Origin: Echinococcus granulosus
Lineage: Eukaryota > Platyhelminthes > Cestoda > Cyclophyllidea > Taeniidae
Assembly: GCF_000524195.1 (NCBI RefSeq)
Contig: NW_020170464.1
Coordinates: 67,386 to 131,385 of the forward strand
Reading direction: 5' to 3'
DNA: 64,000 nt
Position numbers and translations under genes: made by a program. The stretch's first letter is position 1. Every line of letters starts with the position of its first letter. Under the pieces are notes generated by a model. It ran no database searches. It saw nothing but the letters and a program-made list of their open reading frames with translations, and was not told the DNA's origin. This document shows positions 39,201 through 64,000 of this stretch, piece by piece.

Positions 39201-42200
39201 TGCGGCAGCAACAGCTGGGAAGCAGAATGATGTGGACGCTGCTAGTAGCATCACAAGGTGAGTCTTTAGCAGTAAAGGTAATTGAAGTGGTAAGTAGCTT
39301 GTAGATAAGCAGTAGTCATTATTGCCCATGTTTATTTTTACTACTTTTTCCCTTTTTAAATTGTTACCCTTGTTAAAATATTTGTCGATCACCATTGCTT
39401 TTGTTTTGAATCACCCAGGGACACTCCGCCAATATTACCATTACCATTGTTTTCCTGTAAGGCTATTTGCTCACCCCACTCTAACTTCTCTCTTGAATTT
39501 TTCGTATAGTTATAGCCACCATAAGCACGATGAATCGGCCAAAAGCACTTTTTAGTTGTTTTGCTTCCCAGTGCCGTTTTTTGACCCCGTCGTGCGTTTA
39601 AGCTAGTAACAACGAGTTGCCGCTACTGAGCCATACAGTCTTGCTATTTACAGCACACAAAGCCTTTTCCTCAGTTCAATGAGAGCTTTTCTACTTTCTA
39701 TAGTACGGCACTGGATGCAGGACCTTCGGAGGCCTACACTGCCCTCTATGCCTACACTGCGACACGGTTAGATGAACTAACATTTGCGGAACGCGATAAG
39801 ATCCAGGTAAATTGTGGAGTATTGACTCAATTTGTTGAGCTTCCCTTGAATAACTCTCCTCTTACAGATATTCATCAACCCGCCGTTCGAGGTATGCGAA
39901 GGCTGGCTGTACGGTGAAATGGGTGGGCGTCGAGGCCTCGTACCTGCTTGCTACGTGAAGAAGGCGTCAACCGACGTCGATGAGGTCACACCCGCTGCCA
40001 CTGGCGATCCCTTCGCTCTGCCCACCACCACTAGCTCCGCCACCGCCTCAACTAATCCTTTCCCTGCTTTTACAGGACCCGTGCATCAGCCCAACTCTCT
40101 GTACGTTAATCCTCCTCTCTCCGGAGGGGTTATTTGGCCTTTGTCATCGTTTTATTTTTTGAATGCTTTTGTGTAGCCCTCTCGTGGAGGACACACCGAT
40201 GGCTTTTAATGGGGCAAAACCGCTCTTCACTTGTTTGGCGTTGTACGATTTCGAGGCGAAGCTGCTAGGAGATTTGAGCCTCCAAATCGACGATAAGGTT
40301 GACGTCTTTGTGGACAACAATGGGTGGTACGAGGGTGTCTCCCAGCGCACGGGTCAGCGTGGTCTTTTCCCAGCCAATCACGTGCAGAAGTTGCAACCTG
40401 ATGTGAGTAATCGGGGGCTTTGCATGGTCTATGTATTTTACTGTGTTGATGTCATTGTTACCCATTTCAGACAGAACTGTCAACCACAAGCGGAACAACT
40501 GCCCAAACCTTTGCATTCGCTATTCCAACTGAGGAAAAGAGAAGTGCTAAAATCTCACCATCACCACCGTCTTCCACTGTTTTCATCAATCAAGAAGAGC
40601 AGAAGGGGAATGAGAAGAAAGTGGAAATTGATTCGGCGATGATCACAATGTCTAAGACGCCGGAGCTAGCCGTTGTAGTAACACCCTTCATAGCGCAAAG
40701 CAGCGAACAGCTTTCTCTTAATACGGGTCAGTATGTAAAGATCCGAAAACGATCTTCCAATGGCTGGTGGGAGGGCGAAACCCAGGTGTGCTTTCCACTT
40801 TATCTTCTTTGCAAGTAATTCTCGTTAATGTGACTCTGAGTTGTTATCCAAATTGCTTATTTACAAGTTATGCCCCTATTCGACTCTGATGCGATGTTAT
40901 ACATATTGTGAATATTTCCTAGTCCCTGTATGGGGTTGGCTGTTATTTATCATCACAATCCTCTTTGTTGTCTTATTTCAGCGTTGTCACTCCAATCCGG
41001 TGTAGTAGAGGCCACACATCCACCAGTGACAAACTTCCCTTTTTTCGATCTGTCCCCGTAGTTTTAGTTGTATTTGTTCGTATCTTTTCTGTCTGTATCA
41101 TTGCATTTTTTTACCCACTTCCTCTCTACTTCTTGAAGTGATTTTATTTAAGTAAATCCATTTTCAAAATCCCCAACATTGTGACGCCGACCGGTGAATA
41201 ATCTGAACTCTGATTGGGGGGAAAGAGTGACTAGTAGCGAAGCTCGAATATTGTGATCACTAATAAGATTGTGTGTATCTGCATTTCTAGTTTGGCGAAT
41301 TTGCGCGGCCCCTTAGCCTTGATTGTTCCAATAATTTAGCAAAAATAATAGTCAAATCGATTGTGCATGTCTAGCTACTTATTCTTTTCAAAGTAGCATT
41401 TGTGGCATTGCTAGCGGGTTACATTCACAGTCCTATTCTTCTACCCCATTTTTTTAGCTACGAGGTCAGGATCGACAAATAGGATGGTTTCCGGCTGATT
41501 ATGTTCGTCTGGTCAATGCTAACAATGCTTCTGGTGAGTTAACAACCAACAAAAGTGTTAACTTCATATTGCAATATTTGTACTCCGTGTTTAATAACTT
41601 TCTTGTCACTATTTTTGAGCTTCATTTGATTAAATACTCTCGATGTTTTTATGGGTTGATAGACTTTTTTGAAGCAAGTAGTCTTCAATACAAGTGTAGC
41701 AAATTTTGTCCATTTTTGGAGGACTGCACAGTTCCTTGTTTTATAAAGTTCGCTCTTCTATGAGGTCTCAAGGGATACCGTAGATCATCACAGACGAGAT
41801 CAAGTGATCAGGAAGAATTGTGTGATGCGCAGTACGCCCCACCGCAATGACGTGTCATTTGCGTGTGGACTTGTAATGTGCATGCGATCGCATATACGCT
41901 TGCACCGTAAAGCGCTAGCCATACGTCAGTCCATCGGTACTCTTGATTGTGCTCTCTACTATCTTCCTCGTATTTGCAACCTTATTGTGCAATGTTGTTT
42001 GAACTAGATGGATGGAATCCGAGTTTAAATCGGTTTCTTATCTGCAGAAACTTCTTGTCACGCTGCTTGTGCAGTAGGTGGAAAGGGTGAGGTAACAGGA
42101 CGTACCGCCAGAATTGACTAAAGAATGTTTTGGTGATGAATTACTCAATGATAGATGCATCACGTTCAGGAAGACTCTCTTCTCCTAATAATGAAGAGGT

Positions 42201-45200
42201 GCGTGGCGCTACTGATTAAAGTTATTTAAGATTCGCGTGTTAAGATCTTTCATTCACGCCCACACTATCTGAGAACGTTGCCGGAGCTTCTACTTAAATA
42301 AGCCCCATCCCAATTCATTATCAACAGATAACAATATGCTTCAAAGATTGTCAGTTTGCTCCTTACCTTTGGTTACTTGTTTTATTTTTAAGCGACCCAC
42401 TAACTGCTTCACATTTTTAAGGCAGGACTCAATTTTCTGGAAGATTATGTTGTGTAGAGAACTATTCACTTACTAAAGTCGAAATAATCACGACTGAGAT
42501 TCCCACTTGATACAATTGGAATGTGTGCGAAAAATACCCTAGAAACGATTTGGGAAGATAGATCTAGTGATGTAATCCGAAGATAGTCCTATTCTGGCAA
42601 GATAATAGAAGGCCTCACCTTCAAACTTACTTGTGGCAAGACGTGAACTATGGGATAGAATGCCACTTTTTCTTCACATCAGAAAATAAAGTGCTGAAAA
42701 TAAACCAAAATAAAAGCGACGCTTCAATTGCGCTTTTATTTATAGTGGCAAAGTGTGACAAAAGTGGAACTCGTAGCTAGCGTTACTTACATTTGTGATC
42801 AATCCTCACTTCTCTGGTGTTAGAAAACCAGACAGCTGCAGCATCAATTGAACCTGCATTGGGACCAACGCCAGTGGTTCAGGAATTAGCGGCTGACGCA
42901 GCTGTTGCCGCTCCTCCACCTTCCACTATCGAGGTTGAACGGCAGAGCTCCGGTCCATGTGCTTCCACTTCCACAACTACAACAACGTCGGCAGATCTTG
43001 CTTTGGCCTCTATGGTGCAATCAATGTTTGCATACAAGGCCTGTCAACCTGATGAGATGACCTTTCCCGAGGGCGCACTGATCGAGGTTCTGACGCACGA
43101 GGAGGAGGGCTGGTGGCGCGGACGCATTCAGTCTACCGGTGTTGAAGGCCTCTTCCCTGTCAACTATGTCAAACCCATTCAGCCCGACACTGCTACTACT
43201 GCTGTTTCCACCCCTACTGCATCATCCTCCACTGCCGGTGTCGTCTCAAAACCTTGTGAGTTTGCTGTACTGCGTATCTAATCGACCAGTATCCATTTGT
43301 TTCTCTCCTTTTCATTCCTCTCCATCCATAACTTTTTTTATAACGCCTACCCTATTCCCTGAAAGGTAAGTGCTTCGGCTTTGTTTCTTAACACCTTAAT
43401 ACCCGCTTACTGCGCTTCTTGATTTGAGACTTGGTCTGCAGCTTCAATAGTGTGTTTTTCTTTTTCTCTGCCTTTCTTCTGGTATCTACGACACCATCGA
43501 CAACCACCAACAATCGCTAACATAAACGGTGCGTTTTGTCTGTTGCACGCCTGCTTGCTTACTTGCGATGTTGTACCTGTTTGTTTGCCTCTAGAACTGT
43601 CGCTATCCTGTTTTCCTTCCTTTTAATCTCTTATTCCTCTCCATTGGTGGTTTTACTCGATTAAAAGAAAACATGGAACGTGAAAAAATGACCAACTTGT
43701 TCCCCTATAATATAAGTAGAGGTTGGGCTTCTTGGTCCCCTGTTTTCATTGGCTAATCGTTAAATCAGTAACCCTAGGCGAATGCGTGATTTCCTCAACT
43801 TATGGTCCCTTCCTCCCCTGGAGTGAACGTAAAGCAATCAACTATCTTCAGAAATCAATTTGATCAGCTCATATCAAAAAGGGTTGAATTGTCTTTGTCG
43901 ATTATTTGCTGCTTTTTCGAGGAGGCCTCATAACATCATGTGCAAGGCGGCATTCTGCTCCGCTGTGGCTCATGTTTATCCTTTTTTCCATTAGAGTCTG
44001 TTATCTAAACGAACTTCATGATTGGCTATATATTGGCTCTTGCACTCATGGTAATGAACCAATAACTCCTTTTTATTTGCGCACTCTTTATGTTGCTTAT
44101 CATTTTGGCTGAATTTGTTCCCTTTTTAAAGACTCCACTACTTTATTTATGCCTTTTGTTACCGACGGATAGAATGGGTGTCTTCAAGCAGGTAAAGTTT
44201 TAATGAATAAAGCTAGTTGGTTGCTATGACCGGAGTCTGTGTACTTAGAATTTCTGTGACTGAATACGTATAGCAAATATGTAAATTTGGTGCAAAAAGC
44301 TCAAATTGAGCACCTCAAACTAGTGTCAATGGCAGCGTCACTTTCTTCTTCCCTTTTCCTGCATCCCCTCCCACCCACCCATCGTGCGCCTTCTAGCTGC
44401 CCATCAAGGCGATAGAGCAACAAGCAGAAAGACTGTGGTAGCCGCTAAGGACACCCGTTCCACGCGGCAGAACACCATACTTGAATTCATCGAAACTGAA
44501 CGTCAGTACCTCAGAGATCTGGTCGAGGTCAAGGAGGTCGGTTATTTTTTACTGAACATCATGATATTTGCCTTTAAGCATGAACAATGAGTGTATTTAT
44601 TGGATAGAAAATCATCGAGGGCTTGAAGAAGCTGAATGTGAGTGAAAGGAGGCTTGTACAAATTTTTGGCAAATGGACAACTCTGTGTGATATCTCGGAA
44701 GCTTTTAACAAGTACGTCACCATTCAACCGACTTGACTGCTTTTTTTAGAGATTTTCAGGAACGTAAAACACATCTGAAGAGGGGTCACAATGATGTTAT
44801 TGGTGACATTCTCATTCGACATGTGAGTTGTACTTGCAAACCCTAACCGTCTGAATATGGTATTTACTTCTGGCGTTTTGCTACTTTGCCAGCTGCCCAA
44901 ATGCATGGTGTATCGCGAGTTCTGTGCTAATCAAGATCTCGCCCTAAACAATCTGCAAAAGCTCTGTGATGAGAAACCAGATGTGGGTACATTTTTGCAC
45001 AGCTGTGAGCGCTTCATGCGAGTCCAGGCCATGCCGCTCTCTAGCTACTTCCTCAAACCAATGCAACGCATCACCAAGTACAAACTCCTCATTGAAAAGG
45101 TGAGTCTTGTTCTGTCTTGAGGATGATGCTTGAAAGTCCATTTAAACCCCAGGATTCCCTGTTTGCCTGCAGCTGCTGAAATACACCCCAGCCAACCATC

Positions 45201-46902
45201 CCGATCGCAGCAACTTAGAGCAATCATTTGAATTAGCCTCCACAGTGTTGGCAGCATGCAATGAAGCCATTCGAAATCGCGAGTCCTTTACTCAGCTTCA
45301 ATGGCTGCAAGATCACGTAACTTTTGAAGGCGACAACACGTCTCTAGGTATTTGTGGCGAGGACGACAAGCGGTTGGGTGAAATGGAGATTGAAGTGGGA
45401 GGTGAGCGTCGGCGTCGGTTGCTCCTGCTCTCGGGCACACTCTTCAAGGTGAAATCACGAAAGGAACTTACCGCCTTCCTCTTCACTGATATGCTCCTCC
45501 TTACTCAACCCGTCAATCTCTCAGCAAGTGCTCTACCATCGGGAAATTTCACCCTTCCTCTGAAACCTGACGCTACTCTGGTCAAGGCGAACTTCAAGAC
45601 CTATAGGCGTCCCATATCTCTGGCTCAAGTTTGTTCATTCCTTTAATCCAAAATCTCATATTGGTGCGAATACTTCAATGATAGATTTTCAATGCAGATC
45701 AATGTAACCACAGCTGCTTCCGTATCTCCAAAACAGCGTCGCCGCTCCGTATTCCACAATGCCATTTCCCGTTCGAGTCTTGCTGATCTCTCAAGTGTTG
45801 TCAGTGGAGGCAGTGGTAGTGGTATTGCTAAGGTTACCAAGGAGACCCGATCCAAACGTCTCTCTCTGGCGAACCTGCGTCAGCACTCTTTTAGTCTCAA
45901 TAACCTCAGTGGTGCTTCTGCTGATGTGGTCGAAAGTGCCGAGCCTACTGCTTTCATCATCACCGACGATGGCGATCCGAATGTCCGAATTTTGGTCCGC
46001 GCGCCCACTGAAGCACTGAAGTGAGTCAAGCCAGGAAAAGAATTTAAACAGACGTTTTTCACACCACTTTTGTGTATCCACTTTGACATTGTAGGATAAT
46101 GTGGCTGCAAGAGATACGCAAGGCGGCAGTGGAGTATCAGCGTTATCTGAACCTCTTCAGAAATCCTTTCCTTTCGGATATTGGTATGTCAAAGCACTTT
46201 GCTGATCACCACTGCCTTTAGGCAAGGGGTCTTTCTTCGCTGCTGTTATGAATTTGACTGTCATTTCGGCAACCGATTTGCCTATGCTTGGCCCTAACGA
46301 AGACGGTACGGTATAGTTTGCAAAATATCTCCCCTACTTATAGTTAAAGATTTTTGGTGTGGCTCAATAATAAAATGACTGGTATTTTTCGCCCTGCTTG
46401 GCCCTTTAAATTAGCTCCCTTAATTTTCCCACAGTAATTTTTTTGAAGTTGGGGTGTTTTTTTTGCAACATTTTAGAGCTGCCTTGGCCCTATTGCGAGG
46501 CGAGTGTATGTCTTCGTTCCAAACGCACAAACGTCATTCTAAGCACACGCTCGCCAAAATGGAACTCTTCACTGCGTTTCACTGTAAAGGACCTTACCCG
46601 TGACGTCGTCACCTTATATGTTTACAGTAAAAACGCCTCCTCCGCGGCAGGTTCTGCCTTATCCAGCTATGTTACATCTTAGTTACTCAGACAGCTTCGG
46701 TAGACGTGTTTTTTATTTCGTAGAACTGTTGGGTAAAGCGGAGGTTCAGATGCCCGAAATTGTGGAGCATTGTCGTGGTGGTGAGACTTGGAAAATCATT
46801 TTGCCACTCACCTTAACCAACTCTGATGCTATGGGTGCCTCAATCACTGTCAGTTTCAGTCTTACAGAAAATGTGGCCTGTCTGGGAGATGAAGATTTGT
46901 GA
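35215..46902 (+). CDS. ITSN: Intersectin (5' end missing), endocytic scaffold and Cdc42 GEF
   Basis: Twenty-one exons can be followed: 35215-35885, 35935-35998, 36049-36205, 38067-38592, 38971-39257, 39704-39806, 39868-40100, 40177-40402, 40471-40785, 41458-41533, 42824-43255, 44397-44536, 44608-44711, 44750-44822, 44893-45099, 45173-45628, 45698-46020, 46095-46183, 46222-46305, 46477-46650 and 46724-46902, about 1,640 residues. Domains in order: two EH domains, a long Glu/Arg/Gln coiled coil, four SH3 domains, a DH domain, a PH domain and a C2 domain. This is the long, GEF-bearing form of intersectin, which links clathrin-coated pits, dynamin and Cdc42-driven actin at the plasma membrane. 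The first exon begins inside EH1 at an acceptor, and its start codon is not found. Intron sizes range from 38 to about 1,860 nt. The donor at 46651 (GTTCTG) is weak but required to join the C2 halves. Confidence 0.95.
39704..43255 (+). other. ITSN: Four SH3 domains of intersectin
   Basis: SH3-1 (39.73-39.97 kb) has A-L-Y-A-Y-T-A and L-V-P-A-C-Y-V. SH3-2 (40.23-40.40 kb) has A-L-Y-D-F-E-A and L-F-P-A-N-H-V. SH3-3 is split by an intron (40.66-40.785 and 41.458-41.52 kb) and has G-W-W-E-G-E and Q-I-G-W-F-P-A-D-Y-V, matching SH3-D of vertebrate intersectins. SH3-4 (43.01-43.18 kb) has G-W-W-R-G and G-L-F-P-V-N-Y-V, matching SH3-E. One of vertebrate SH3-B or SH3-C has no counterpart. Linkers are rich in Thr, Ser and Ala. 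Confidence 0.9.
44397..46183 (+). other. ITSN: DH-PH module of intersectin
   Basis: The DH domain starts with I-L-E-F-I-E-T-E-R-Q-Y-L-R-D-L (conserved region 1) and includes S-Y-F-L-K-P-M-Q-R-I-T-K-Y (conserved region 3), the residues that contact the GTPase in this family. The PH domain follows, with a Ser/Arg-rich insertion of roughly 80-90 residues between its early strands and the terminal helix (M-W-L-Q-E-I-R-K-A). Predicted substrate is Cdc42, by family. Confidence 0.9.
46222..46902 (+). other. ITSN: C2 domain at the intersectin C terminus
   Basis: Begins N-L-T-V-I-S-A-T-D-L-P, continues P-Y-C-E-A, S-P-K-W-N-S-S-L-R-F and L-G-K-A-E-V, and ends shortly before the stop, as in the long vertebrate isoform. 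Three exons. The loop aspartates expected for calcium binding are mostly absent, so calcium-independent membrane or protein binding is likely (inference). Confidence 0.85.
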
Positions 46903-50664: not shown

Positions 50665-51251
50665 GTTTGATGTAGAGGACTGTTGACTTTTGAGAAAACA
50701 ACTGCATTTTTTTCCAGCTTGCTTGAATGCTTCTTGGATGGGGTGGGACTGCTGATTGGCCTTCTTCATGTTATTTAAGCTAATCGTTTGTTCTGCTCAC
50801 ATTTTCTAATCTACCTGTTTGGTCTCTTGAAACTTTTTATCTTTTGCAAAAAAATTGACTTTCATCGTGAATATTCAGATTTGTAGGGAATTCATGCAGT
50901 TATTCGCATCATCACAAAACTAGTAAACTACACCACTTTCTCAAAGCTCTCTGCCAATTTTTTCGTAGTTTGAAGATGGAGAGTTGGGGAAATCTTACCT
51001 ACCTTCTGTGGTCCCGTTTTATTAAGAAAACTATTTACTATCCGCTTTCACGTATGACTGGTCTACTGCGCAATGGCTAATACATTGACAAGGTTATATA
51101 AGCAACTATTTCTTTAATTTCCAAGGTTCCTTCAATTCACCGTTTGCTGTTACAAATTCCAGGCTGCTTGCAACACGCTTTCAAGAAGTCGTTTTTATTC
51201 TCTCGAACACTCTCCACTTCTCATTCTCAATTTCGTGAATCTCTTTCAATC

Positions 51252-53105
51252 ATGTCAGAAAAGACAGACTACACGCTGCCGCCTGCCTTGGATCTTAAAC
51301 TCGACAAGAATGCCTTTAGAAAGACGGAGATTCTTTTTGCAATTGGGTTGCCCTTAGGTAAACAGTTCAAGAAGATCTTAGAAAAACTTCGTGAATACAC
51401 CACTGGTTACTTAGCTCTGCCCAGATTCATGAATATCTAGTACGTTCGTGGTTGAAGTAATTCTCTCACTTGTATTATATAAGTAACAATTACTTTACTT
51501 ATTCGCGAACAGTACTGACTCTAATGGAGTGAAGCGTAAATTAGTGCTAATACGAAGGATTGACGACTCCAAAGTGTGGGACCAACTTCGAAACCTCAAT
51601 GTGGACATTCCATTGACTCCAAATGAAGATATCACCTACTTGGAATCACATCCAAGTGCTCTCCTTGTGGAGAATTGCTCACCAAGTGAGCGGACCGATG
51701 GGCAAACTTTGCCTTCTAAGCCTTGTGCGTTTCGCATGCCCTTGGAGTACGAAAATTACCCTCTTGATCGCGCCCTCAAAGTGGTGTTGCCATCAGACAT
51801 GGAGGCCGTAACTGGATTTACGTTGATTGGTCATGTGGCACACTTTAATCTTAAACCGGCCGCCTTGCCCTATCGAAAGCTCATAGGTAAGAGCCATCTA
51901 AACGAGGTGCAGCAGTCAAATCATTACAGGTCAAATTGCTCTGGACAAACTGCCTCTGGTGCGAACTGTAGTAAACAAGGCGGCGAAAATAGACGCCGAA
52001 TTTCGGACTTTCGCAGTGGATTTGATGGCTGGGGAGGAGAATTACCTGACTGAGGTGAAAGAAAATGGCGTTACTTATCATCTGGATTTCTCAAAGGTCT
52101 ACTGGAATTCACGCCTTGGTAAATGGTTCTTAAAGAGTTCCTCACCTTTTTTAGGAACTGAACATTGCAGAATCATTGAGGAAATAAAGTGCATCGCGAA
52201 GACGTCGGATGCAACATCCGTGGTTGTTTTCGATGTATTTGCGGGTGTTGGGCCATTTTCCATACCTCTAGCTCGTACTGGCAGCTGTCAAGTCCTTGCC
52301 AACGACCTTAATCCTGACGCCTTTCATTTTCTTCAGGAAAATGTGCGTCGAAATAGCTCCAAAAGGCACCCGCTTACGACGAAACAAATCAAGTGCTTTA
52401 ATTTGGATGGCAGAGACTTCATTCGACAGGTTGTTGTCTTTCTGTTTTGCATATTTTATCGTACTTGTCCAATTTCAGACGATGAAGTTTTTACTTCGAC
52501 TCTGTCCTGTTGATTGGCTAATATTTGCTCTCCTCTGTTATTGACCGTTTCCTAACCAATAGGGCTGCTGGATTGTGAAGTCAGCTTTTTATGAGGAATT
52601 TCATTGGGATTGAAATAACTTTTTAATCATTTTGAGCCCTTTTTCAACTTGAAATTTTCTATTTCCTTTGCAGGTTATCCTTCCATATTACGAAACGGCC
52701 TCACAATCTGACTCGACCGAGTTCTTCATGCTCATGAATCTTCCGGGACTAGCTATTGAATTCCTGGACGTATTTAGAGACTTCAAAGCCGATTTCCCTA
52801 CTAAACCCATCCACATTCGATGTTACTGTTTTGTTCGTCACAGTCTCGAAAACGACACTTCAAAAAGTATGAAACAGACGGAGGCAGATACGGACACTCG
52901 TAAAAGAGTCTGCGAGGCTTTGGGTGTTGAATTTGATGCAATCTCTGTGGATGATCAACATGAAAACTCTTCTGGTACCTATTTAACTGGGTGGAAGGTC
53001 CGGTTTGTACGAAACACGGCGCCGCTTAGGGACATGTACTGTCTACAGTTCGATCTCCATCTCTGTGCGTCCCATGCTTCTGCTAAGCGACCGAGAAATG
53101 AATAG
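51252..53105 (+). CDS. TRMT5: tRNA (guanine37-N1)-methyltransferase TRMT5
   Basis: Exons 51252-51440, 51513-51886, 51930-52118, 52155-52429 and 52674-53105, all phases consistent, about 485 residues. The enzyme transfers a methyl group from S-adenosylmethionine to N1 of G37 next to the anticodon (Trm5/TYW2 family, class I Rossmann fold). Visible signatures: V-Y-W-N-S-R-L before the catalytic domain, F-D-V-F-A-G-V-G-P-F-S-I-P (SAM-binding motif I), A-N-D-L-N-P (motif II), N-L-D-G-R-D-F, and M-N-L-P-G-L-A (family N-L-P motif). TRMT5 normally serves cytosol and mitochondria. The frame is open upstream of this ATG for at least 30 codons with Ser/Arg/Phe-rich, presequence-like content (around S-R-T-L-S-T-S), so a longer mitochondrial form starting in an upstream exon is possible. 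Confidence 0.95.
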
Positions 53106-53815
53106 CAGACCTGTCCGCCCTTCTTTGCACCTCTGGATTTTTTGGTAGAGTAGGTGGTGGGTATTGCTTGTTAGCTACGATTTCAATTTTTTAGTGAGAG
53201 TCAGCACCATTTCTCTCTCGCTTTGCTTACCCTATGCTTGCTACTCTTTTGGAGAATTGCTGCTCGCCTTCATGACACAGCGCTCCATTATCGCCCTATT
53301 TTGGGCAAAAAGGATGCCGTTTATTAGCCGACCTCAAAAAAGGGTCCACATTTTCACTTTTAATCGGTTGGTAATTGAGTAACAGCAGCAATTAGTGTCA
53401 GAGGCAATCAAGATGGAAATCAATTAGTGAGAGACAGGAGAGGTGAGCAAAACCCTTAAAGCGGGATGATTAAGGAGACAGGTTTACGTGTTTGTGTGTG
53501 CGTGACTCTTTGTGTCTCCAGTCAAATTAGGCTTGATTAATTGAAGTGCTCGTCACAAAGCTACGCGAGGGAATTAGATTAGGCATCAACTAGAGCTGGA
53601 TCCACCCGTCCTCCCTTCTGTCTCCTCAGTCGAAAAAAATGTGAGGGATCTGCAAGTTCTCATGAAAAGTTGCGCAACTGGTGGCGGCAAGAGTGGCCAC
53701 TACATTTGGTCCTTCTTTTGGGCAAATTTGATAGACGTCTATGGGAACGAATGGTAGCAAATCAGTTTGATGGGAAATAGCACGAATAAGGTGGACTTAG
53801 CAAAGACAAGCAAAA
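53106..53815. other. Intergenic, TRMT5 3' flank
   Basis: No gene seen. It contains the likely TRMT5 3' UTR and AT-rich flank. TRMT5 (+) and the micro-exon gene (-) converge here. Confidence 0.5.
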
Positions 53816-54058
53816 GTGTTTAGTAAGGACTGGAACAGGCTAGCTCGACCCCTATTGGGCGATCCTGCAATGGCGGAGTTAGCTTCAATTCAGCATTGCC
53901 TAAAAAGTGGAACGGAGCTTTCGTTGAATATTTCCTATAAGTCTGCAGAGAATAGAAATCGGTGCGGAGTGTTTACCATTTGGCTGGAACAGCACCTGTT
54001 GCAGCAAAGGCAGAAGCATGGTCCCGTAAGTCTAAATTTTAGAAAGCCGGGAAGATAG
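53816..54058 (+). other. Plus-strand open frame opposite the 3' end of the micro-exon gene
   Basis: A protein-like plus-strand frame: A-E-L-A-S-I-Q-H-C-L and W-L-E-Q-H-L-L-Q-Q-R-Q. It contains an ATG at 53871 and reaches a perfect donor (GTCCC/GTAAGT, 54026). It directly overlaps the proposed last exon of the minus-strand gene. Either it is the first exon of a short antisense gene, or the minus-strand 3' end is wrong in this part. No family recognised and no following plus-strand exon confirmed. Confidence 0.3.
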
Positions 54059-57000
54059 ACCAAAATAAAAATAAGTAGTATGTCGTCAGATGTCAAAAGA
54101 TGATTGGGCGATGTCATAACCACAGATCTTCTGGTTGATGACACTCCTTTATCTCTGTGACAATATTAAACGCACATCCGATTGAAGGCCAAGCATTTTA
54201 CACTTAGTGCAAATAAGTAGTCTCACTTGTGGCAGGTGAACCGACGAGGGATTTGGGTAGCCCCGGGAGAAAGGAACCTTTTAGCCACGTAGACTTCTCC
54301 GGATGACGATCTTTTGATAAAATAAAAGAATGACATTCATAGTTTGACGATTCGACTGGTCAACAGTACATCAAGTGTAAATGACAAGACCGCAACCTAC
54401 GAAGAACTGCTCGAACTGCTCGAAGAGCTGGAGGACCGACTCCTCTTCTTCGATTTCTTACTGGGGTCGATTACTTAAAAATAAGCAAAAAACTATTGAA
54501 CGAATGGATTCTTCTTTGGATGACAAGTGGAGCTGATCAGTACTGTGAGCTTTGAAGCTGTCAACAAATGCCAAGAATGATAAGTTTGAAAGAAATAAGC
54601 TGTATTTCAAATTACTAGGAGTACCGGTTTCCCCTGACCAGATAAGCGTTAAAAATAATTCTTCGTGAAATAAGTGCATCTGCAGAAGAGCTGTCACTAA
54701 TAGCTCCATGTTTTAACTGCAAAGCTAAATATTCCCAAGAGGTCCCCGTGGTAATACCAAAATTCCTCGTTCACTATGCCACAGCTCTCACTAGCAAAAT
54801 ATACTACCTTAAATTCAAAGACATTTCGCACAAAAGTGAAGTCTGCCATACCGGCCAAAAATCTGAATAAATTCTGAGATTAAAGGTCATCTACTTCGTT
54901 TGAATAGACAATTATTGAAGGAAAATTCCGAAAGTTGAAAAAGAGTTTCAGCTTACGGACATAGAAGTCGTCTCCATCGCTCAGGTCTTCTGGTCCGAGA
55001 ACTTTCAGATACTTGTGATCACTTGTCTCAATGATTAGGTCGCCTGAGTGAAAAAAAAATGACAAAGGGGCATTGAAAATTACTGAACATTTCTAAAAAA
55101 AGGTAATCAGGTACAAATGCACTCGCCATACCGTCTTGGATCTCGCTCCTGGACTTGATTGGAGAGACGCGATAGGTGCACTGTAATAATTTAAAGTTTA
55201 CTTCCCAATTTTTTAAATTCAAAATTATTTGGAATCCTGAGTCGTAACAGCTTATTTCTCATTAATGCTAACGAAAGCGGAAATTCGACAAGGCCAATTA
55301 ACTTCAACCTTTAAGGATATAGATACACGAAGTACAGAAGTGATTCGTTCCCTCCTATTTGAAACTCAAGAGTATCCTCTTATTTTCACATCATTATACC
55401 ATGACGTGACAAACCATGTGCATGAAATTCGTAGGATAAACAAGGTAATATGATTATCAAACCAGTTTTTCTTCTTTGCATAAGGACATTACGGAATTAG
55501 GACTTACGCTAGACTTGATTGGTGACTTTAGCCTGCGGCGATGACTAGCCGATGGCTAAAATTTTTAAGTGATTAAGCGTTCAACCCATTTACTCAAGGT
55601 CACCGAATAACAAATAAGTAGCGGGGCGCATCCTACCGATCGTCTTTTGGATGGCGAGGCAGTTCTTAGCGGAGAGACCTTAAAAAAAGAGATGCAAGGT
55701 TAAGTAGTTTAATTTAGCATGGGGAATTTCATCGAGATGCTCTAATTATGCGACAAAATTTTCACAAAAAAATAAATATTTGCAAACATTTTACTTGATA
55801 TTGCATCACATTTGGGTTGCGTAAAGAGAGACGCTATTTGGTTTGTATAAGATAAATGGTACTTAATCTCCTAGAATGAGATTAATTTAGTACTATCTAT
55901 ACACTAAATTTATTTTGCGTTCGTGATCTCATTGATAATGGATATTTTTCCTAAAAATTTTCAACTCATTAAAGTATACAATGCAATATTTTGTAACTCT
56001 AAAATTAATTAATTCAGCGGATAGTTTACAATGGGGTTAAACCGCACAAACTCACTGAAAAGAAAACAATAAAATCAGACAAATTACGACAACAAGTAAC
56101 TGCGTTAAGTGCTGGACAAAATGTTTGAAATAAAAGGACTAGACGCCACTAATAACCTTAACAAAAAAAGGCCGGGAAGTATTCTAAAATGTTAATGTGG
56201 GTTAACCGCACGAAGATATTGACACACCAATGCGACTTACAACCGTGATTGCTGGGAAGCAGCGCTTTAATAAACAAAACGAACGGATAAATCTGCACTT
56301 GAATACCGCTTTAGTTCTGGATTTTTTGTATCAAGATGGTGTAAATGTAGAATGGTGGCCAGATTTTCGATGCTCGCTTAGTGATTTTGCATTGTTTGCG
56401 GTTATTTCTTTGTATGGTTACAAACGGAGATTGGCCTTGTTATGCCACGCTCGTAGGTGTCTTTAGGTTTAAATGGCGAAAATCCCTTGTCGACTATTCA
56501 TTTTCTTGTTACTTGTTGTGATTGTTCAAATTGTTAGCAATTAGCACCAAGATTATTCAAATCAAAATTAGCGAAAACAAAAGAGCTAAGGCGGTGTTTT
56601 GTTTGAATGAGTATTGGCTTGAAATTCTTTAATAAATAAGTGGTGGAGCAGAGCCAGTTTGTAAGTGGATTTTCCTTATCAGGTTGCAGTAATCACGATA
56701 GTATAACTTACAAATTGCGAAGCTGGGTGACAACACTTCAAAGGAATAATCAAAACATCATTAGATGGCAATTAATGCATAGCAGTAGTCAGCACTAGAG
56801 ATCCAGACCTATGCGCGATGACGTTATCTGATCAACTACTAGTGCCAAATTGTTTTAAACACATAGAGGGAACTTTACGCAACTCCTTATGCCATTTGTC
56901 GAGCAAATTGCCCTGATTTTGACAGCGAAGTCATGCGTACACACAAATACTAATTAAGAAGTAATTTCCCGACAAAGTGACATTGGGGAATTATTACTAA

Positions 57001-58042
57001 AATCCGTGTATGTGGCGCAATAAGTGAATTAGTGATATCTCTTTCTCTGCCGGTTTTTTTTTCTTCATCTCTATATGAGTACCTCTGTGTGTGCGTATAT
57101 GCCGAACATATCAAATTTAATTAATAAAGTTAGGAAATCATTTCCGTAACAAGAGGCTAAAATTTCGAAACTCAAGGCTACAAAGTTACAAACCGGGTGA
57201 CTTACGAAGCAGATTGGTGAGGGAACCTTAATCAAACGAGTGGGTGAAGCCTAAAAGGTTATATCAGATTGGATAGTCAAAAAGAACCAACTATCTGTCC
57301 TCGTGTCAATTCAAGGTCTTAAACATACCTGTCTTGTTGTGGGAGAGTGCCGATGTGGAGATGTCTTTAGGGGTGAAAAGGAAAAAAAGACGATTTTTAT
57401 TTAAGCATTTCCCGAAACACATAACATTCCCGTTCTAACATGAAATCTGACTTTGCTTTGCTCGAATTAGTCGTGGGGAAAAAATCATTCAAACTTTCTC
57501 TACCACGGGAAGTGGAGAAATAGAATCTGAAGAAGGCATTTGGTTACAAAATTTAAGTTCTTCAGAGGTGAGTCGATTGGTCAAAAAACAACGAAAAATG
57601 ACTTCCACACGGGCCCTCTTCCTTCAACCCATCAGGAAATACATTTAAGCAAAAGTACGCACTTGAGGGGAATGAGAACAGCAATGGTGAGCTCCATGAC
57701 CATACTTTCTTTGCAGTATCTTCATGAAGGCCCTAAAATCAAAAGCAGGTGATAAGATGACACGCCTTCGAGCAGAGTCGATGAAAATTGACATAGTATC
57801 GTCTCACCCGTTTGCCCAGATCTCGCCTTCACCCAAGTAGGCATAGGGTTTGCCCTCAGACTCATCTGAGTAGCCCTCGGAAACGTATTGATGCCTGGCT
57901 TTTTGAACTTTCGTGGTTTTTTGGGATTTGCGCGATACGTGTTGCCTTGGGCATTAAAATTGGAAAAAAAGGAAATATATGCAAAAACCTGGCTTAATAA
58001 ACCGTGTAATTACTTTAGTGCTCTGTAGGCAAATACTTCCAT
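53935..58042 (-). CDS. Micro-exon gene: Ser/Pro/Arg-rich protein of unknown function
   Basis: Model built from splice sites. Exons (minus strand): 58042-58014, 57945-57808, 57732-57663, 57364-57329, 57226-57206, 56735-56712, 56264-56241, 55833-55795, 55678-55637, 55555-55508, 55180-55132, 55043-54957, 54473-54401, 54310-54227 and 54154-53935. Every junction keeps phase and no internal stop appears. The ATG lies seven bases after a pyrimidine-rich acceptor (TCTCTATTAAAAG), as for a trans-spliced start. The N-terminal part is basic, then acidic (S-E-G-Y-S-D-E-S-E-G). Micro-exons add modules such as T-S-P-H-R-H-S-P and S-P-S-K-R-R-S. The C-terminal part has D-L-I-I-E-T-S-D-H-K-Y-L-K-V-L, then K-K-S-K-K-R-S-R and a run of about 12 Ser. 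No signal peptide, so a nuclear or cytosolic SR-like protein is more likely than a secreted one. No homologue recognised. The 39-nt exon (55833) and the last exon are the weakest parts. Confidence 0.7.
55265..55453 (+). other. Antisense open frame within an intron of the micro-exon gene
   Basis: Plus-strand frame open from an acceptor-like CGTAACAG (55250) to a GTAATA donor-like site (55445). It is rich in Glu, Thr and Ile (E-I-R-Q-G-Q-L-T-S-T-F-K-D-I) and ends H-E-I-R-R-I-N-K. Protein-like but unassigned. It could be an exon of a nested gene or chance. Confidence 0.2.
55508..57364 (-). other. Array of seven symmetric micro-exons (36, 21, 24, 24, 39, 42, 48 nt)
   Basis: In order of transcription: 57364-57329 (12 residues, T-S-P-H-R-H-S-P-T-T-R-Q), 57226-57206 (7, V-P-S-P-I-C-F), 56735-56712 (8, C-C-H-P-A-S-Q-F), 56264-56241 (8, R-C-F-P-A-I-T-V), 55833-55795 (13), 55678-55637 (14, with S-P-S-K-R-R-S) and 55555-55508 (16, with K-S-P-I-K-S-S). 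All are multiples of three in phase 0, so any subset can be skipped without changing frame. Donors are GTATGT, GTAAGT (four times), GTAGGA and one weak GTAAAA; acceptors follow T-rich tracts. Several modules repeat a Pro at a similar place, suggesting duplication of an ancestral micro-exon. Confidence 0.7.
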
Positions 58043-61000
58043 GTTTGTGCTTTTAATAGAGAAAAAAACTTTTGCAGTTAAGATGACACGTGGTTCTTGA
58101 CAAAAAACAATTTTAGATAAATAGCTAAATACACTAATAGCTACTTGATAAGATCCCTCAAGTCGAATTAGCCCAAGGCCTGGAAGCCTCGGTACAGAGG
58201 GTTGAAGTGGCGATAACACACAAGGATTTTGAAAAACTTTTAGAAAATATTTTTGCATGAAATATGGAAAAATAACAGCATGACTGACAAAGTAAAACCA
58301 TATTTCAGGCATTCAGTTGTTCGTGTAAATGTACAGACAGTGGTAACTGTAAAATCTAGGAGCGTGGGTCACGTTTACATTGTCTTCGGATTGCTAAGAA
58401 TATACCAAAAAAAATTGCAAAACTAGTAGAATGGGCTAGCAAATAGGTATGAAAGATGATAACGCTGTTGTACACAAGTATTGACATCGTCGCTATTTAT
58501 TTTTTCCTAAAAACGAGTTTACGTAGTATGATTTTGTATTTGTGAGAAAAATTCTGAAAGTAGTTTGCCAAATACTTTTGTATTATGCACACAATACATA
58601 TTTTGCTATTTTTCACATTTTCTAAAAAAGATGTGGAAAATTATCTCGCTTGACTTTGCCATGCATATTACACAGTGAAAGTGGATAAAAAGCTGTGGAA
58701 TTAAAATTCAAAAGCACTTTCAAACACCCGAATTTGCAAGGGAAGCGTTGTTTTTCAGGGCCGTCTTTGAACGTTTTTATCCACCAATTGCGTAGAAATA
58801 TATCTCTTTTGCTGTTAATGATACAAAAACATGACAAAATCAGACAATGTGGTTAGGTGAAAGATCAACGGATGAATAAAGGTGGATTGAAAGGTCAGCA
58901 TGAAGAGGTTGGAGCACCCGGACCTACCGATACTCAGGCTCCGTACCGATGCAGCATGGGCACCTGCGTTGGCTGAACATGCTCTAGAGGTAGACTGAGT
59001 GATTTCCAAAATTGGGGTGCCACCCTGATAAATCACGGGCGTTGATATACTTAATTTCGGGAGCCAACCAATCAAATTTCGTGGCTTGGAGCACCTAATG
59101 CCTAATTACACTCATGCAGGCACACACGCATGGGTGTGGAGCAACCACCCTTGCAGGCACACGCACACGCCAGTGGAGAGGGGATCTGGGATGAATGTCA
59201 AGTGGTATGTTCTCTCTTAAACACATGGGCATGAACTATAATGTGAGTGAGATCACCTAACTGTGAGAATTATGGGAGGTTTGTCAACTCTCTGTGTTAG
59301 TAAACCTGACATACCAAGGACGAGGAAAAATAATGGTGTTCGTAGTGTGCATCTTCCAGACAAAATCTGTAACTCCTGGGTTGGTTTGGTTCAACAGGAG
59401 TATCATCGTTATGATAGTGATCAATGGCACCTACATTTTTCCTTCATCTATCTCTCAAAATAGTCCAGTCGATGCGGAATATGATCTATTTACCATATCA
59501 GTACCTTAAATTCAGCCAAGTTTATCTCTTTATTTAACGTGACTCACATTTTCAAGCAGCCTTGTTGATTAAAAATGGGTTGCATTCGGCGAGGGTGTCT
59601 TTTTGATACGTAGTTCTGGATTTTTAAATAAATTAATGGTAATTTGAATATCCGGCTCCAATCGAATTTATGGGAAAAAATTGTCCTAAATATGAAGAGA
59701 CTTAAACAGTAATTTTGCCTTCATTTACAAACCTACTGGGGATCGCAATTTTTTGATTTACAAGCATAAATTGTGCGGTTGCCAAAAAGCTGCTGCTTTT
59801 GATGAGAGTCGGGTACAATCAAAAAGCTTCCTTGAAAGCGTTTTCTTCCTGTGAAAACCTCTTTGAAAGACTTTGTTACCGGAGATGTGAACCGGTGAAC
59901 TTTATCACCTTCTATTTCCTTCCAACGAGATTTATAGTTGGCAAATTCAACTTATGTAAGACATTTCATCTCCATGCGTAAATGAAATGTTCTAGCAACC
60001 CCTTTTTTATATTTCACTGACCAACTCTTTGGCCCTTTTCACAAACGATGATGCGACCAACGAATACCAGGAAAGGGTGATGTCCATCACTTGGGGAACT
60101 ATTGTGATGGGACTATGGGGTGTGAGAACGAGAACGAAGATGAAGGTCTACCAAATCGTTGTTTCCATATTTCTTTAAAATATTAGAAGATTTTGCTTTA
60201 ATATTATTTTATCAGTTGTCGATAATCCTGCGTCACAACCGACACAATGAAGTACAATTCCTCAGTCAAAACATCTAGTGTTCCTGACTGCGCATATCAT
60301 GTCAGTTTTTCTTGGCAAAAAATCCCCCCAGAGTCTTATTTTTTGTGTCTCACTGCTAGCATACCAAAATGGCTACCGTGAAACAGGCCTTTTCCCAGGC
60401 TGAATTTTGAGGGATTTCACGCGAAACCGAGCTCCGTGAGACTGCTGAATGGTAATTGACTACGTCGGCGCTGAGGCTTTTTTTTCGTTTTCTACTTCGC
60501 TGCAAAACTAGCAATTAAACTACTACTCAACAAGGAGAAAATACTTCATTCTGCAGTGGCATTGCGTTCATCTTACGATAACTTATTTACAGGTAAATAC
60601 CAATTCCCATCTATCCCTAAGGGCAGGTAGCCGGAGAAATGCGAGTTTAATGGGATCACTTCTAATGGGCCCTTGAGGAAATCATTTTCAGTCTTTATGA
60701 TAATGTTGTCACCCAAGCAATTGTGATATAAATGTGAAAATATGAATACTTGTTAAAAATAAATATTTGTGATTCAAATCCTGCCTCCCAGTCTGTACGA
60801 AAGCTATTTACTTAAAATATGAATGGGGTAAACGAAGGACGTGCGTTTTCTGTTTATCTCGTGAATAAGCAATTTCTAGGGCTTTCTTGGAAGCAGAATC
60901 TGGAAACAATTTGAATAAAATTAGGAAAAACAAATTATAGTAAATAAGTAGTCCTCGCTAAGCCCTATAGAAGGACAGATTTTTGCGTACTACTCTAGTC

Positions 61001-61132
61001 ACTACTTGTTATGCCTTCCTAAAGAATGACCATTTCAGGTTAAAATTTGGAGATTACACCGAAAATCGTATCTGATCATGTGAGGCAAGCAGTCATAACC
61101 GCGGAAATCTGCTTATGCTTTTAAGAGGCAAT
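58043..61132. other. Intergenic region upstream of the micro-exon gene
   Basis: Presumed promoter side of the micro-exon gene. Some minus-strand segments look exon-like (58120-58230, Pro/Leu-rich, ending at a GTAGCT donor; 58930-59020, ending at GTAGGT), but I could not chain them in phase. Otherwise nothing supported. Confidence 0.4.
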
Positions 61133-61425
61133 CTAATGCCAAGTAACATTCAAGGGCACTTTGAAGAATGGCAAATGCCCTGGAAAAATAATGCCGACCA
61201 AACAGAGCATTTGAAATTCACTTACCATTTCTGACGCATTGTGCCGCATTAGGCGGCCTACACCACTGAAGCACCCACGCGCCTGATGTACTTGAGCGCG
61301 GAAAAATAGTGAGAAAATGTACAACAATTCGCCAATTAATGATCTTGCAAACCGATTTAAGTTACTGCTCAAGGAATGTGGAATTTTCAGAAGGCACGCA
61401 CCATAATCTAATCCCGTCATCATTT
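61133..61425 (-). CDS. Small three-exon unit, product unknown
   Basis: Minus-strand exons 61425-61366, 61290-61226 and 61179-61150 (or to 61133). Acceptors are strong (CCCTGTTAAG, CGCTCAAG after a T-rich tract, TTTTTCCAG) and donors GTAACT and GTAAGT; the second intron is 46 nt. Two reading frames stay open across all three exons. Frame A starts with ATG two bases after the first acceptor and gives about 50 residues (M-M-T-G-L-D-Y-G-A-C, ending S-S-K-C-P). Frame B has no start in the first exon and would be the end of a longer protein, with a Trp/Cys-rich composition (L-W-C-V-P-S-E-N, A-W-V-L-Q-W-C-R-P-P, ending N-V-T-W-H). The sequence cannot decide between them. No family recognised. Confidence 0.4.
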
Positions 61426-63725
61426 CTTAACAGGGAAGGCGCTCAGGTACGTACGTGAAATTCATAAGTGTAAATTACCCTTTTTTTAAAGTACGTTTGA
61501 ACTAAGCAACCAATGAGCGACCAGAATAACTTGCATAAATAACAGTTAGATTTGGCGCGGAGGGGCTCAGTAGCAAATCTTGAGTATCAAAACCAAGGCA
61601 AATGCATAAAGTTATAAAAAAGCACCCATGTAAAATTTGAGAAAAATAATTAATCGGCGATTGAAGTAAGATAGATTTCAAGGGGTTTATGGCTGCGATA
61701 CAACCTCTACGTTTTTATAGATGTTCAGGGGAATTGTATAACTTATCGGAGTACTAATGGAGTTACCCATTATATTTAACGATAAAAATATGCTGATAAA
61801 TCATTAGGATGGCTGGTCATAATAAACATATATTCAGAATTTTCTATACGCAGGCAGATTGGTGGGCTTTGCCAACCGTCATCACATTCACATTATTTTG
61901 CCGTACAAGTAAATGTGGGGAATAAAAATTGAATGATTTCTCTTTGCACTTGACATTTTGACACCATAATATGAAACATCGGTACACACAACCGGCCTGT
62001 ATGTAGAGTCAACACAGTAAGCTTCCCAAATATCCCATTTTTAATGCCGGTTGTTTTGACCTCAGGTACGTGGCCAAAGAGTCGTGTCTACTGCCCATAA
62101 AATTGGTGGGCGTTAACAGTAACTTACATCCATGCTTGTACGCTGTTATCACATTCGAAAAGCCCTAGTTTAAGTAGACCAAAATTTTGCATTTTAAATA
62201 TTGAAAAGAATTTTTTAGTTACCTGGTCCACTTTATTCTATTCATAGTTTCACCGTAAATGGAACAGTTTTTCGTTGAGTTAATTAGGCAAACTTTTTGA
62301 GGGCCCCAAGCCTTTGTTAAGTATAACTAAAGCCAGTTTTGGGACTTTGAGGCCTGAATCATTAAGCTTTCTTTTAAGGCTTTTAATATAATTTTGAATT
62401 TTGTTTAGATTGATTGACGCCCGTTCTGATGGTTTAGTTGGTAATCGCGGTGCTTCTGTACCTCGTGGTTGTTAAGGTGATTTCTTGTTAACTGAGTGCG
62501 TCACTTCCCAGTGGTTGTTAGCATAGTATTTGGTCCGTATTTTCTGGATTTTTAGTCTTTTTATTGCCACAGCATACCCTCCTTGTGTTTAAAATCAAAT
62601 AGGTATTCGGGTTTAGATGCTTTAGTCTGGATTAGTTTGCATTCCTTTATTTACTGTCAAATTCTTTTTGCACTTGTGTGCGGGAAATGACGGATTTTTT
62701 GCGTTTCGAACTTTGGTGAGTCCGATTATTCATTGCCTTATGATTGTTTTGGTCAAGTTTATAGATTTCAGTACTTTAGTATCAATTAATGCCTTTTAGT
62801 TAATTTTGCCCACATAAGCTACATCTGATTTTATCATTTAGTATACTGTTGTTTCACAAATTACTGTCTCTTTTAACTGCTGATGTCCCATTGTTACGGC
62901 CCTGTACTCTAAGTTCGATCGGGCGCTGTTTTAGACTGTTTTGTTATTGCCTGGTATACTAGCTGGTCTGCGTAAGCTCTGAAACTTGTTTGCTTGTACT
63001 TTATGGTACCTCTGTCTTCATCAGTGACAGTTAGAAACTCTATTTATTACATTAGCTACCTCTTTTTAAAGTTTTTTGCTTTTATTTAGACTTTGTTTTC
63101 GAGTCTTTTTGTCACTTTTTAGCAGCCATTGGTGCCTTTAAATGGGTGGTTTTGGGATTATAGCATTGCCTTTGGTAACTTCTTGGATTTGCGCTGATGC
63201 GCATATTGCCTCCTTTTTTGTCGTATTCAGAAGAATCAAATGTTTGATAAAAATGTTTATTAATCCGTTGGTTTCGGTAATTGACAGAGGCGTATACTTC
63301 GTCATTACACTTTATTTGTTTTCATTGTATCACCCTTTGCGGTCACAATCGTGCTTAATTGCTTTTTTCCCTTGTTTTCTTTGAATACTTAAGCTAGCTT
63401 GATTGGTGGACCAAATATTTGCCAATTTCCCTTGATATTATTTCGAACATTTTTATGAGCCGTTGGGTATGCATCAAGTAGATTTTATCATTTAATTGAT
63501 TTCTCGCCTTGCATTTGTAATGTATTTGCCTAATTACACTTAATGCATTCAACAGTTACGCCAAGATTGTAAGTTTGCCATCATCGGTATCTTATCTACA
63601 ATGCGAGCCTCATACAGCGTTAGATTTCCTTCCCAAAAGAGCAAATCACGGCAAGTCTCCCATTTCAATTCACTTGCATCAATGTGCAACCAGACTTATA
63701 CTTCCTCTTCTCGACCTGCAGATCA
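61426..63725. other. Intergenic region upstream of the transporter gene
   Basis: AT-rich, strongly T-biased on the plus strand from about 62.2 kb. No exon supported. It probably contains the promoter or upstream UTR exons of the transporter that starts at 63726. Confidence 0.5.
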
Positions 63726-64000
63726 ATGCCATCTTTGGCTTTACATCCACGAAACCTTAAGGTCATTGGCCTGGTCATTTTGACTCTCCAAACCACCGCG
63801 CTAGTTCTTCTCATGAGGTACACGCGTCTTCCCTCAGCCACCAACCCCGCCAGTAGCCTCTACCTCACTTCCACCGCAGTATTCTGTGCTGAAGTGTGCA
63901 AAGTTGTGGCCTGTTTCTGGGCTGTCTTCGTGCAGAACGGTAATTCCCTCAGAGCGACATCTACCGAATTGCAACGTGAGCTCTTCTCTGCGCCGCTGGA
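63726..64000 (+). CDS. SLC35A: Nucleotide-sugar transporter, SLC35A family (5' part, runs off the window)
   Basis: ATG four bases after a strong acceptor (TCGACCTGCAG), then 91 codons open to the window edge. Membrane segment 1 reads L-K-V-I-G-L-V-I-L-T-L-Q-T-T-A-L-V-L-L-M-R-Y-T-R. The family hallmark Y-L-T-S-T-A-V-F-C-A-E-V-C-K follows (S-S-T-A-V-V-x-A-E-x-x-K in SLC35A2/A3), and then S-L-R-A before an amphipathic loop. Members exchange UDP-GlcNAc, UDP-Gal or CMP-sialic acid for the nucleotide monophosphate across the Golgi membrane. The Tyr-Leu-x-Ser-Thr-Ala-Val pattern fits the UDP-GlcNAc/UDP-Gal branch best, but the substrate cannot be fixed from this part. Confidence 0.88.
   Translation, partial: MPSLALHPRNLKVIGLVILTLQTTALVLLMRYTRLPSATNPASSLYLTSTAVFCAEVCKVVACFWAVFVQNGNSLRATSTELQRELFSAPL

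What the first reader, a model, noticed from the sequence alone, without database searches (positions are those of the whole stretch)
53935..58042. A micro-exon gene: seven consecutive phase-0 exons of 21-48 nt encoding Ser/Pro/Arg modules
Seen directly: strong T-rich acceptors and consensus donors delimit tiny segments, each a multiple of three, stop-free in one frame and joining in phase to larger exons on both sides (15 exons in the full model). Known: schistosomes carry micro-exon genes built of symmetric tiny exons that create protein variants by exon skipping; those products are mostly secreted. Here there is no signal peptide, and the modules and the Ser-run C terminus look SR-like. It could be a cestode-lineage micro-exon gene with an intracellular role. 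An ordinary gene finder would miss it.
Basis: partly seen in the sequence, partly recalled or inferred. Interest (0 to 1): 0.88.

Follow-up and report, generated by a model that had tools for sequence, protein, structure and literature searches.

The report
Tapeworm gene with six consecutive micro-exons
This piece of the Echinococcus tapeworm genome holds a gene whose detected relatives are all tapeworm proteins where a species is named; six tiny exons in a row encode a serine-proline-rich stretch of a likely intracellular protein, and leaving exons out in different combinations keeps the reading frame and is predicted to make many versions of it.

Summary
Homology gives a 15-exon coding model on the minus strand, 58980 to 53885, 280 residues. 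Six consecutive exons (36, 45, 24, 24, 42, 48 nt) are symmetric, open and enclosed by phase-0 introns. Eleven related records were found, all tapeworm where a species is named; an Echinococcus granulosus protein matches 190 of 190 shared residues. Each micro-exon peptide beats every length-matched AG..GT decoy (0 of 194-275) against at least one orthologue linker. Wrong in the finding: six exons, not seven; the start exon at 58042 is unsupported (start 58980); in Echinococcus the serine run is not the C terminus. Annotation does mishandle the gene: the E. granulosus record lacks two micro-exons, T. solium lacks the array, Hymenolepis weldensis has two genes. It is not a strict micro-exon gene: 6 of 15 exons and 26% of coding sequence are micro-exons, and no hydrophobic N terminus is seen. 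Best reading: an intracellular, tapeworm-restricted protein whose micro-exons encode a basic, disordered Ser-Pro linker, predicted to be tuned by exon skipping. Skipping, phosphorylation and function are inferred, not shown.

The parts
58928..58980 (-). Exon 1, 53 nt coding, MFSQRRCPCCIGTEPEY + split Arg codon
   Evidence: tblastn of 7 of 7 orthologues; donor gtaggt
57808..57945 (-). Exon 2, 138 nt, holds conserved KPYAYLGEGEIWAN
57663..57732 (-). Exon 3, 70 nt, AFMKILQRKYGHGAHHCCSHSPQ; ends in phase 0
   Evidence: P0001 match; donor gtgcgt
57329..57364 (-). Micro-exon 4, 36 nt, TSPHRHSPTTRQ
   Evidence: 0 of 206 decoys against T. crassiceps
57206..57250 (-). Micro-exon 5, 45 nt, ASPTRLIKVPSPICF
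   Evidence: 0 of 195 decoys against T. crassiceps
56712..56735 (-). Micro-exon 6, 24 nt, CCHPASQF
   Evidence: 0 of 275 decoys against T. crassiceps CCHPATQC; absent from P0001
56241..56264 (-). Micro-exon 7, 24 nt, RCFPAITV
   Evidence: 0 of 275 decoys against A. perfoliata RCSPIIKV; absent from P0001 and P0002
55637..55678 (-). Micro-exon 8, 42 nt, VSPLRTASPSKRRS
   Evidence: 0 of 196 decoys against each of four linkers
55508..55555 (-). Micro-exon 9, 48 nt, PSASHRRRLKSPIKSS
   Evidence: 0 of 194 decoys against T. crassiceps
55132..55180 (-). Exon 10, 49 nt, CTYRVSPIKSRSEIQD; starts in phase 0, ends in phase 1
54957..55043 (-). Exon 11, 87 nt, DLIIETSDHKYLKVLGPEDLSDGDDFYV, conserved segment
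   Evidence: 100% to P0001 and P0002
54401..54473 (-). Exon 12, 73 nt, IDPSKKSKKRSR + serine run; weak donor
   Evidence: P0002, P0003; donor score 1.4
54227..54310 (-). Exon 13, 84 nt, SSSGEVYVAKRFLSPGATQIPRRFTCH
   Evidence: P0002, P0003
53977..54031 (-). Exon 14, 55 nt, LTGPCFCLCCNRCCSSQM
   Evidence: P0002 only
53885..53899 (-). Exon 15, coding part 15 nt, AMLN and stop
   Evidence: P0002 ends AMMN

Best explanation
This Echinococcus gene, whose detected relatives are tapeworm proteins, has six consecutive symmetric micro-exons encoding a basic, Ser-Pro-rich linker between two conserved segments of a likely intracellular protein, and whole micro-exons are predicted to be skipped in different combinations to tune that linker. 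Shown by sequence: seven successive phase-0 introns around the six micro-exons, and an open frame in all 64 in/out combinations, with linkers of 13 to 86 residues and 1 to 9 Ser/Thr-Pro pairs. Shown by comparison: the modules recur in Taenia, Anoplocephala and, in part, hymenolepid orthologues. Inferred: the linker is phosphorylated by proline-directed kinases, skipping is regulated, and linker length and phosphorylation set how the two conserved segments engage partners. The partners and the biochemical activity are unknown.
For: 15-exon model with in-phase joins. 11 relatives in three searches; 190 of 190 shared residues with E. granulosus P0001. Each micro-exon: 0 of 194-275 decoys against at least one orthologue linker. 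Modules 4, 5, 6, 8, 9 follow one another without a gap in T. crassiceps, whose gene set used RNA-seq hints (PMC9128525, passages). P0005 codes all 279 residues on a 939-base contig, as a spliced transcript would. Ser/Thr-Pro 9 against a shuffle mean of 3.1, 1 of 5000 as high; 14 Lys/Arg, 0 Asp/Glu in the linker; no hydrophobic N terminus. Linker mostly under pLDDT 50. 64 of 64 combinations open. Seven of eight own-genome matches lie in this gene, the eighth has E 0.041, so no second copy was found.
Against: No read or junction was seen; absent modules in records may be prediction errors. No record holds exons 6 and 7 together. Some comparisons fail: exon 6 against hymenolepids 188 and 88 of 275 decoys, exon 7 against T. 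crassiceps, P0005 and P0006 49, 138 and 88 of 275. Frame-keeping is not special to the micro-exons: exons 2, 11 and 13 can also be skipped in frame. No domain or fold match, so the function is a guess. The Schistocephalus record has no Ser-Pro in its linker.
Confidence: 0.6

Rival explanations
1. The gene and its micro-exons are real but always included; the array is a by-product of intron gain in a fast-evolving disordered linker and makes no isoforms.
For: T. crassiceps and A. perfoliata records keep five of the modules or their likely counterparts; no skipping junction was seen in any call.
Against: Records of four species lack whole modules at module borders (P0001, P0002, P0003, P0007); seven successive phase-0 introns.
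Confidence: 0.33
2. It is a classical secreted flatworm micro-exon gene.
For: Run of six symmetric micro-exons; such genes are reported in tapeworms (PMC7653826, passages).
Against: 6 of 15 exons and 26% of coding sequence are micro-exons; most hydrophobic 19-residue stretch starting in the first 30 residues has mean Kyte-Doolittle -0.91; well conserved segments on both sides.
Confidence: 0.05
3. Exons 6 and 7 are not parts of one mRNA but mutually exclusive 24-nt modules, or exon 7 is unused in Echinococcus.
For: P0001 has neither, P0002 has 6 only, P0004 has a likely 7 only.
Against: Only a few records, mostly predictions; the likeness of exon 7 to CCHPATQC is reached by 49 of 275 decoys.
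Confidence: 0.3
4. The micro-exons are chance AG..GT segments.
For: Lenient models thread chance micro-exons anywhere; no clear mod-3 enrichment.
Against: 0 of 194-275 decoys for each of six.
Confidence: 0.01

Closest known systems
Flatworm micro-exon genes (MEGs) of Schistosoma, Echinococcus multilocularis and Hymenolepis microstoma
   Same: Consecutive symmetric micro-exons that could be skipped without a frame change; poorly handled by automatic annotation.
   Different: Micro-exons are 6 of 15 exons and 26% of coding sequence; no evident signal peptide; conserved segments on both sides; no sequence relation to a named MEG was found or specifically searched for.
Regulated microexons of planarians and vertebrates (3-27 nt; PMC4978528, passages)
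   Same: Short exons in an ordinary intracellular gene; exons 6 and 7 (24 nt) fall in the size range.
   Different: Four of the six are 36-48 nt; a tandem run of six; regulation not shown.
SR and SR-related splicing proteins (recalled)
   Same: Basic, Ser-rich stretches with SP and some RS pairs, and a Ser run.
   Different: No RRM, PWI or other credible Pfam domain; Ser-Pro rather than long Arg-Ser repeats; Cys-rich ends.

Membership tests
Micro-exon gene, operational definition of PMC7653826 | At least seven exons | tested here: met
   15 coding exons in the homology-based model
[quoted passage not shown]
   Run of six, exons 4-9
[quoted passage not shown]
   6 of 15; untranslated exons unknown
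Schistosome MEG (PMC5825161, PMC10526429) | About 80% of coding sequence in symmetric exons of 6-36 bp | tested here: not met
   Exons 4-9 are 219 of 843 nt (26%); those of 36 nt or less are 84 nt
Schistosome MEG (PMC5825161, PMC10526429) | N-terminal signal peptide, secreted or exposed product | tested here: not met
   Simple hydropathy only, maximum -0.91 near the N terminus; no dedicated signal-peptide program was run
Schistosome MEG (PMC5825161, PMC10526429) | Protein variants by skipping of micro-exons | not testable with these tools
   No reads available; records differ by whole modules, cause unknown
SR protein family (definition recalled) | RNA recognition motif plus RS domain | tested here: not met
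   No RRM in the first-pass window translation, in 7 of 7 members of A1, or in P0005 and P0010

The most novel reading that the evidence does not exclude
The array is a splicing-set phospho-rheostat: a tapeworm-only intracellular protein whose six-member micro-exon array, gained in the cyclophyllidean lineage (the Schistocephalus record has a short linker without Ser-Pro), gives up to 64 forms that differ in the number of proline-directed phosphorylation sites between two conserved modules, with the two 24-nt exons acting as alternatives to each other.
Probability: 0.2. Interest if true: 0.75.

Novelty: new variant of a known kind. Interest (0 to 1): 0.55.

Why it matters
Micro-exon genes are known mainly as secreted, weakly conserved parasite proteins, which makes their exon skipping hard to study. 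Here a run of micro-exons sits in a conserved, apparently intracellular protein found in several tapeworm families, with a Schistocephalus relative that may lack the run. One could then ask when such a run arose and what skipping does, in a laboratory tapeworm. It also shows how current annotations mistreat such genes: several database records differ from the corrected model, each in another way.

Tried and rejected
A lenient gene-model search over-predicted micro-exons along the whole region and was dropped as evidence; it served as a warning. A mod-3 count on strong splice candidates gave no clear enrichment. The first-pass model began at 58042 and ended exon 3 at 57706; orthologues replaced both. 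An intermediate 14-exon model ended at 53935 and was replaced by the 15-exon one. The second open frame through the last exons (RHPEKSTWLKGS...SSPY), used by the E. granulosus record, was set aside as the main frame because T. crassiceps and T. solium continue in the other frame after the Ser run.

Papers: PMC7653826, PMC10526429, PMC5825161, PMC4978528 and PMC9128525 were seen as search passages, none in full; PMC3964345 was not held. A search for four orthologue locus names found 0 papers. Searches on micro-exon genes with tapeworm or Echinococcus terms (others listed, the last of 346) showed none about this gene by title or abstract start. Supplements could not be searched, so its presence in the published E. 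multilocularis or H. microstoma MEG tables is unknown.

Full report
What was checked. The finding names 53935-58042 on the minus strand. I read 52501-64000, scored splice sites and frames, and then looked for relatives.

Splice signals alone are not enough. With lenient settings a gene-model search strings micro-exons along all 11 kb. Among strong-site candidates of 12-75 nt in the region, 4 of 10 have a length divisible by three, against 29 of 98 in the rest of that strand. A later list of phase-0 open candidates between 57662 and 55181 holds 13 rows: the 6 model exons, 4 that overlap model exons 5 or 8, and 3 elsewhere (56183-56157 and two with an acceptor at 55833). Without relatives the observation could not have been accepted.

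Relatives. A search of about 5.8 billion proteins found 7; profile searches added 3 and 1, 11 in all: Echinococcus granulosus P0001, Taenia crassiceps P0002, T. solium P0003, Anoplocephala perfoliata P0004, an unnamed contig P0005 (86% identical to P0006 over 254 columns), Hymenolepis microstoma P0006, Rodentolepis nana P0007, H. weldensis P0008 and P0011, Mesocestoides corti P0009, Schistocephalus solidus P0010. All named species are tapeworms. The method needs shared 5-residue words, so distant relatives may be missed. P0001 matches the window model at 190 of 190 shared residues with one gap of 16 residues, so the window is E. granulosus or very close to it. Its contig here has 319,052 bases against 367,319 for that record's longest contig, so it is probably another assembly.

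Corrected model. Orthologues place the start exon at 58980 (7 of 7 queries), extend exon 3 to 57663 with a gtgcgt donor, and carry the frame past the Ser run. T. crassiceps SSQMAMMN suggests the end at 53885; this rests on one record. Coding exons: 53, 138, 70, 36, 45, 24, 24, 42, 48, 49, 87, 73, 84, 55, 15 nt; intron phases 2, 2, 0, 0, 0, 0, 0, 0, 0, 1, 1, 2, 2, 0. The six symmetric micro-exons are thus enclosed by seven successive phase-0 introns.

Test of each micro-exon. Length-matched AG..GT-bounded open segments from both strands of the window, leaving out this gene's own strand and region, were scored without gaps against the linkers of P0002, P0004, P0005 and P0006 (4 of 11 records; P0001 was left out as the same species, P0007 because its linker is cut short, the others because they lack the array). 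Decoys that score as well, in the order T. crassiceps, A. perfoliata, P0005, H. microstoma: exon 4, 0, 1, 4, 0 of 206; exon 5, 0, 16, 1, 2 of 195; exon 6, 0, 14, 188, 88 of 275; exon 7, 49, 0, 138, 88 of 275; exon 8, 0, 0, 0, 0 of 196; exon 9, 0, 0, 0, 1 of 194, of which the A. perfoliata and H. microstoma matches fall at another place in the linker. So each exon has at least one relative, exon 8 four, exons 6 and 7 one each. In T. crassiceps the modules of exons 4, 5, 6, 8 and 9 follow one another without a gap, as expected if their borders are exon borders; that gene set was predicted with RNA-seq hints (PMC9128525, passages). P0005 codes 279 residues on a contig of 939 bases, which fits a spliced transcript; what its source 'lgn' stands for is not given by any search.

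Differences between records. P0001 lacks exons 6 and 7 and reads the Ser exon in another frame. P0002 lacks exon 7. P0003 lacks exon 3 and the array. P0007 lacks 27 residues that P0005 has there. H. weldensis has the two halves under neighbouring locus tags, both on a contig of 56,311 bases. No record carries exons 6 and 7 together. Whether these absences are isoforms or prediction errors cannot be told here.

What the protein looks like. Invariant in the seven records of A1 are CPCC near the N terminus, KPYAYLGEGEIWANG, and much of CTYRV...GDLIIET..HK.L.VLG...S.GDDFYV. The window's 86-residue linker has 9 Ser/Thr-Pro pairs (shuffle mean 3.1; 1 of 5000 as high), 14 Lys/Arg and no Asp/Glu; P0002, P0004, P0005, P0006 and P0007 are reached by 2, 0, 0, 2 and 125 of 5000 shuffles. 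The AlphaFold2 model of P0002 is confident only for about residues 151-200 and mostly under 50 in the linker; that fits disorder but does not prove it. The search of the own genome gave 8 matches, 7 in this gene and one at E 0.041 elsewhere, so no second copy was found. No credible Pfam, PDB or fold match. The most hydrophobic 19-residue stretch starting in the first 30 residues averages -0.91 on the Kyte-Doolittle scale, so a signal peptide is unlikely; no dedicated program was run.

Mechanism. All 64 in/out combinations of the six exons stay open, with linkers of 13-86 residues and 1-9 Ser/Thr-Pro pairs; leaving out exon 3 or 10 gives a stop at residue 82 or 163, while exons 2, 11 and 13 can also be left out in frame. 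I infer a linker tuned by skipping and by proline-directed phosphorylation between two conserved segments of an intracellular protein. The Schistocephalus record joins its segments through about 20 residues without Ser-Pro (read): either the array is absent there or that sequence skips it.

Known kinds. The operational definition of a micro-exon gene (PMC7653826, passages) is met for exon number and run length, not for the share of exons (6 of 15). The schistosome description, about 80% of coding sequence in symmetric 6-36 bp exons and secreted products (PMC5825161, PMC10526429, passages), is not met. By exon design it works like a MEG; it is filed as a conventional conserved gene with an internal micro-exon array.

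Noticed in passing
53899-53823 (-): The last exon is also open in a second frame (NAELKLTPPLQDRPIGVELACSSPY), used by the E. granulosus record and resembling the C-terminal tail of P0005: score 33, reached by 2 of 2000 shuffles and 3 of 1467 open decoys.
   Followed up: partly
53743-53621 (-): Possible alternative 3' exon: 61% identity over 41 residues to the tail of the T. solium record P0003, with one stop in the window.
   Followed up: partly
58981-59002 (-): An acceptor-like ...ctctag lies three bases before the start codon; it could be a spliced-leader trans-splice site, untested.
   Followed up: no
35211-46900 (+): Intersectin-like gene (name recalled): EH domains (E 6.1e-40), SH3 domains and a PH domain.
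   Followed up: partly
51102-53105 (+): TRM5/TYW2-type tRNA methyltransferase gene (Pfam E 9.7e-18 on 51902-52513), convergent with the micro-exon gene.
   Followed up: partly
19087-20130 (+): Open frame of 347 residues with a sub-threshold F-box match (E 0.033).
   Followed up: no
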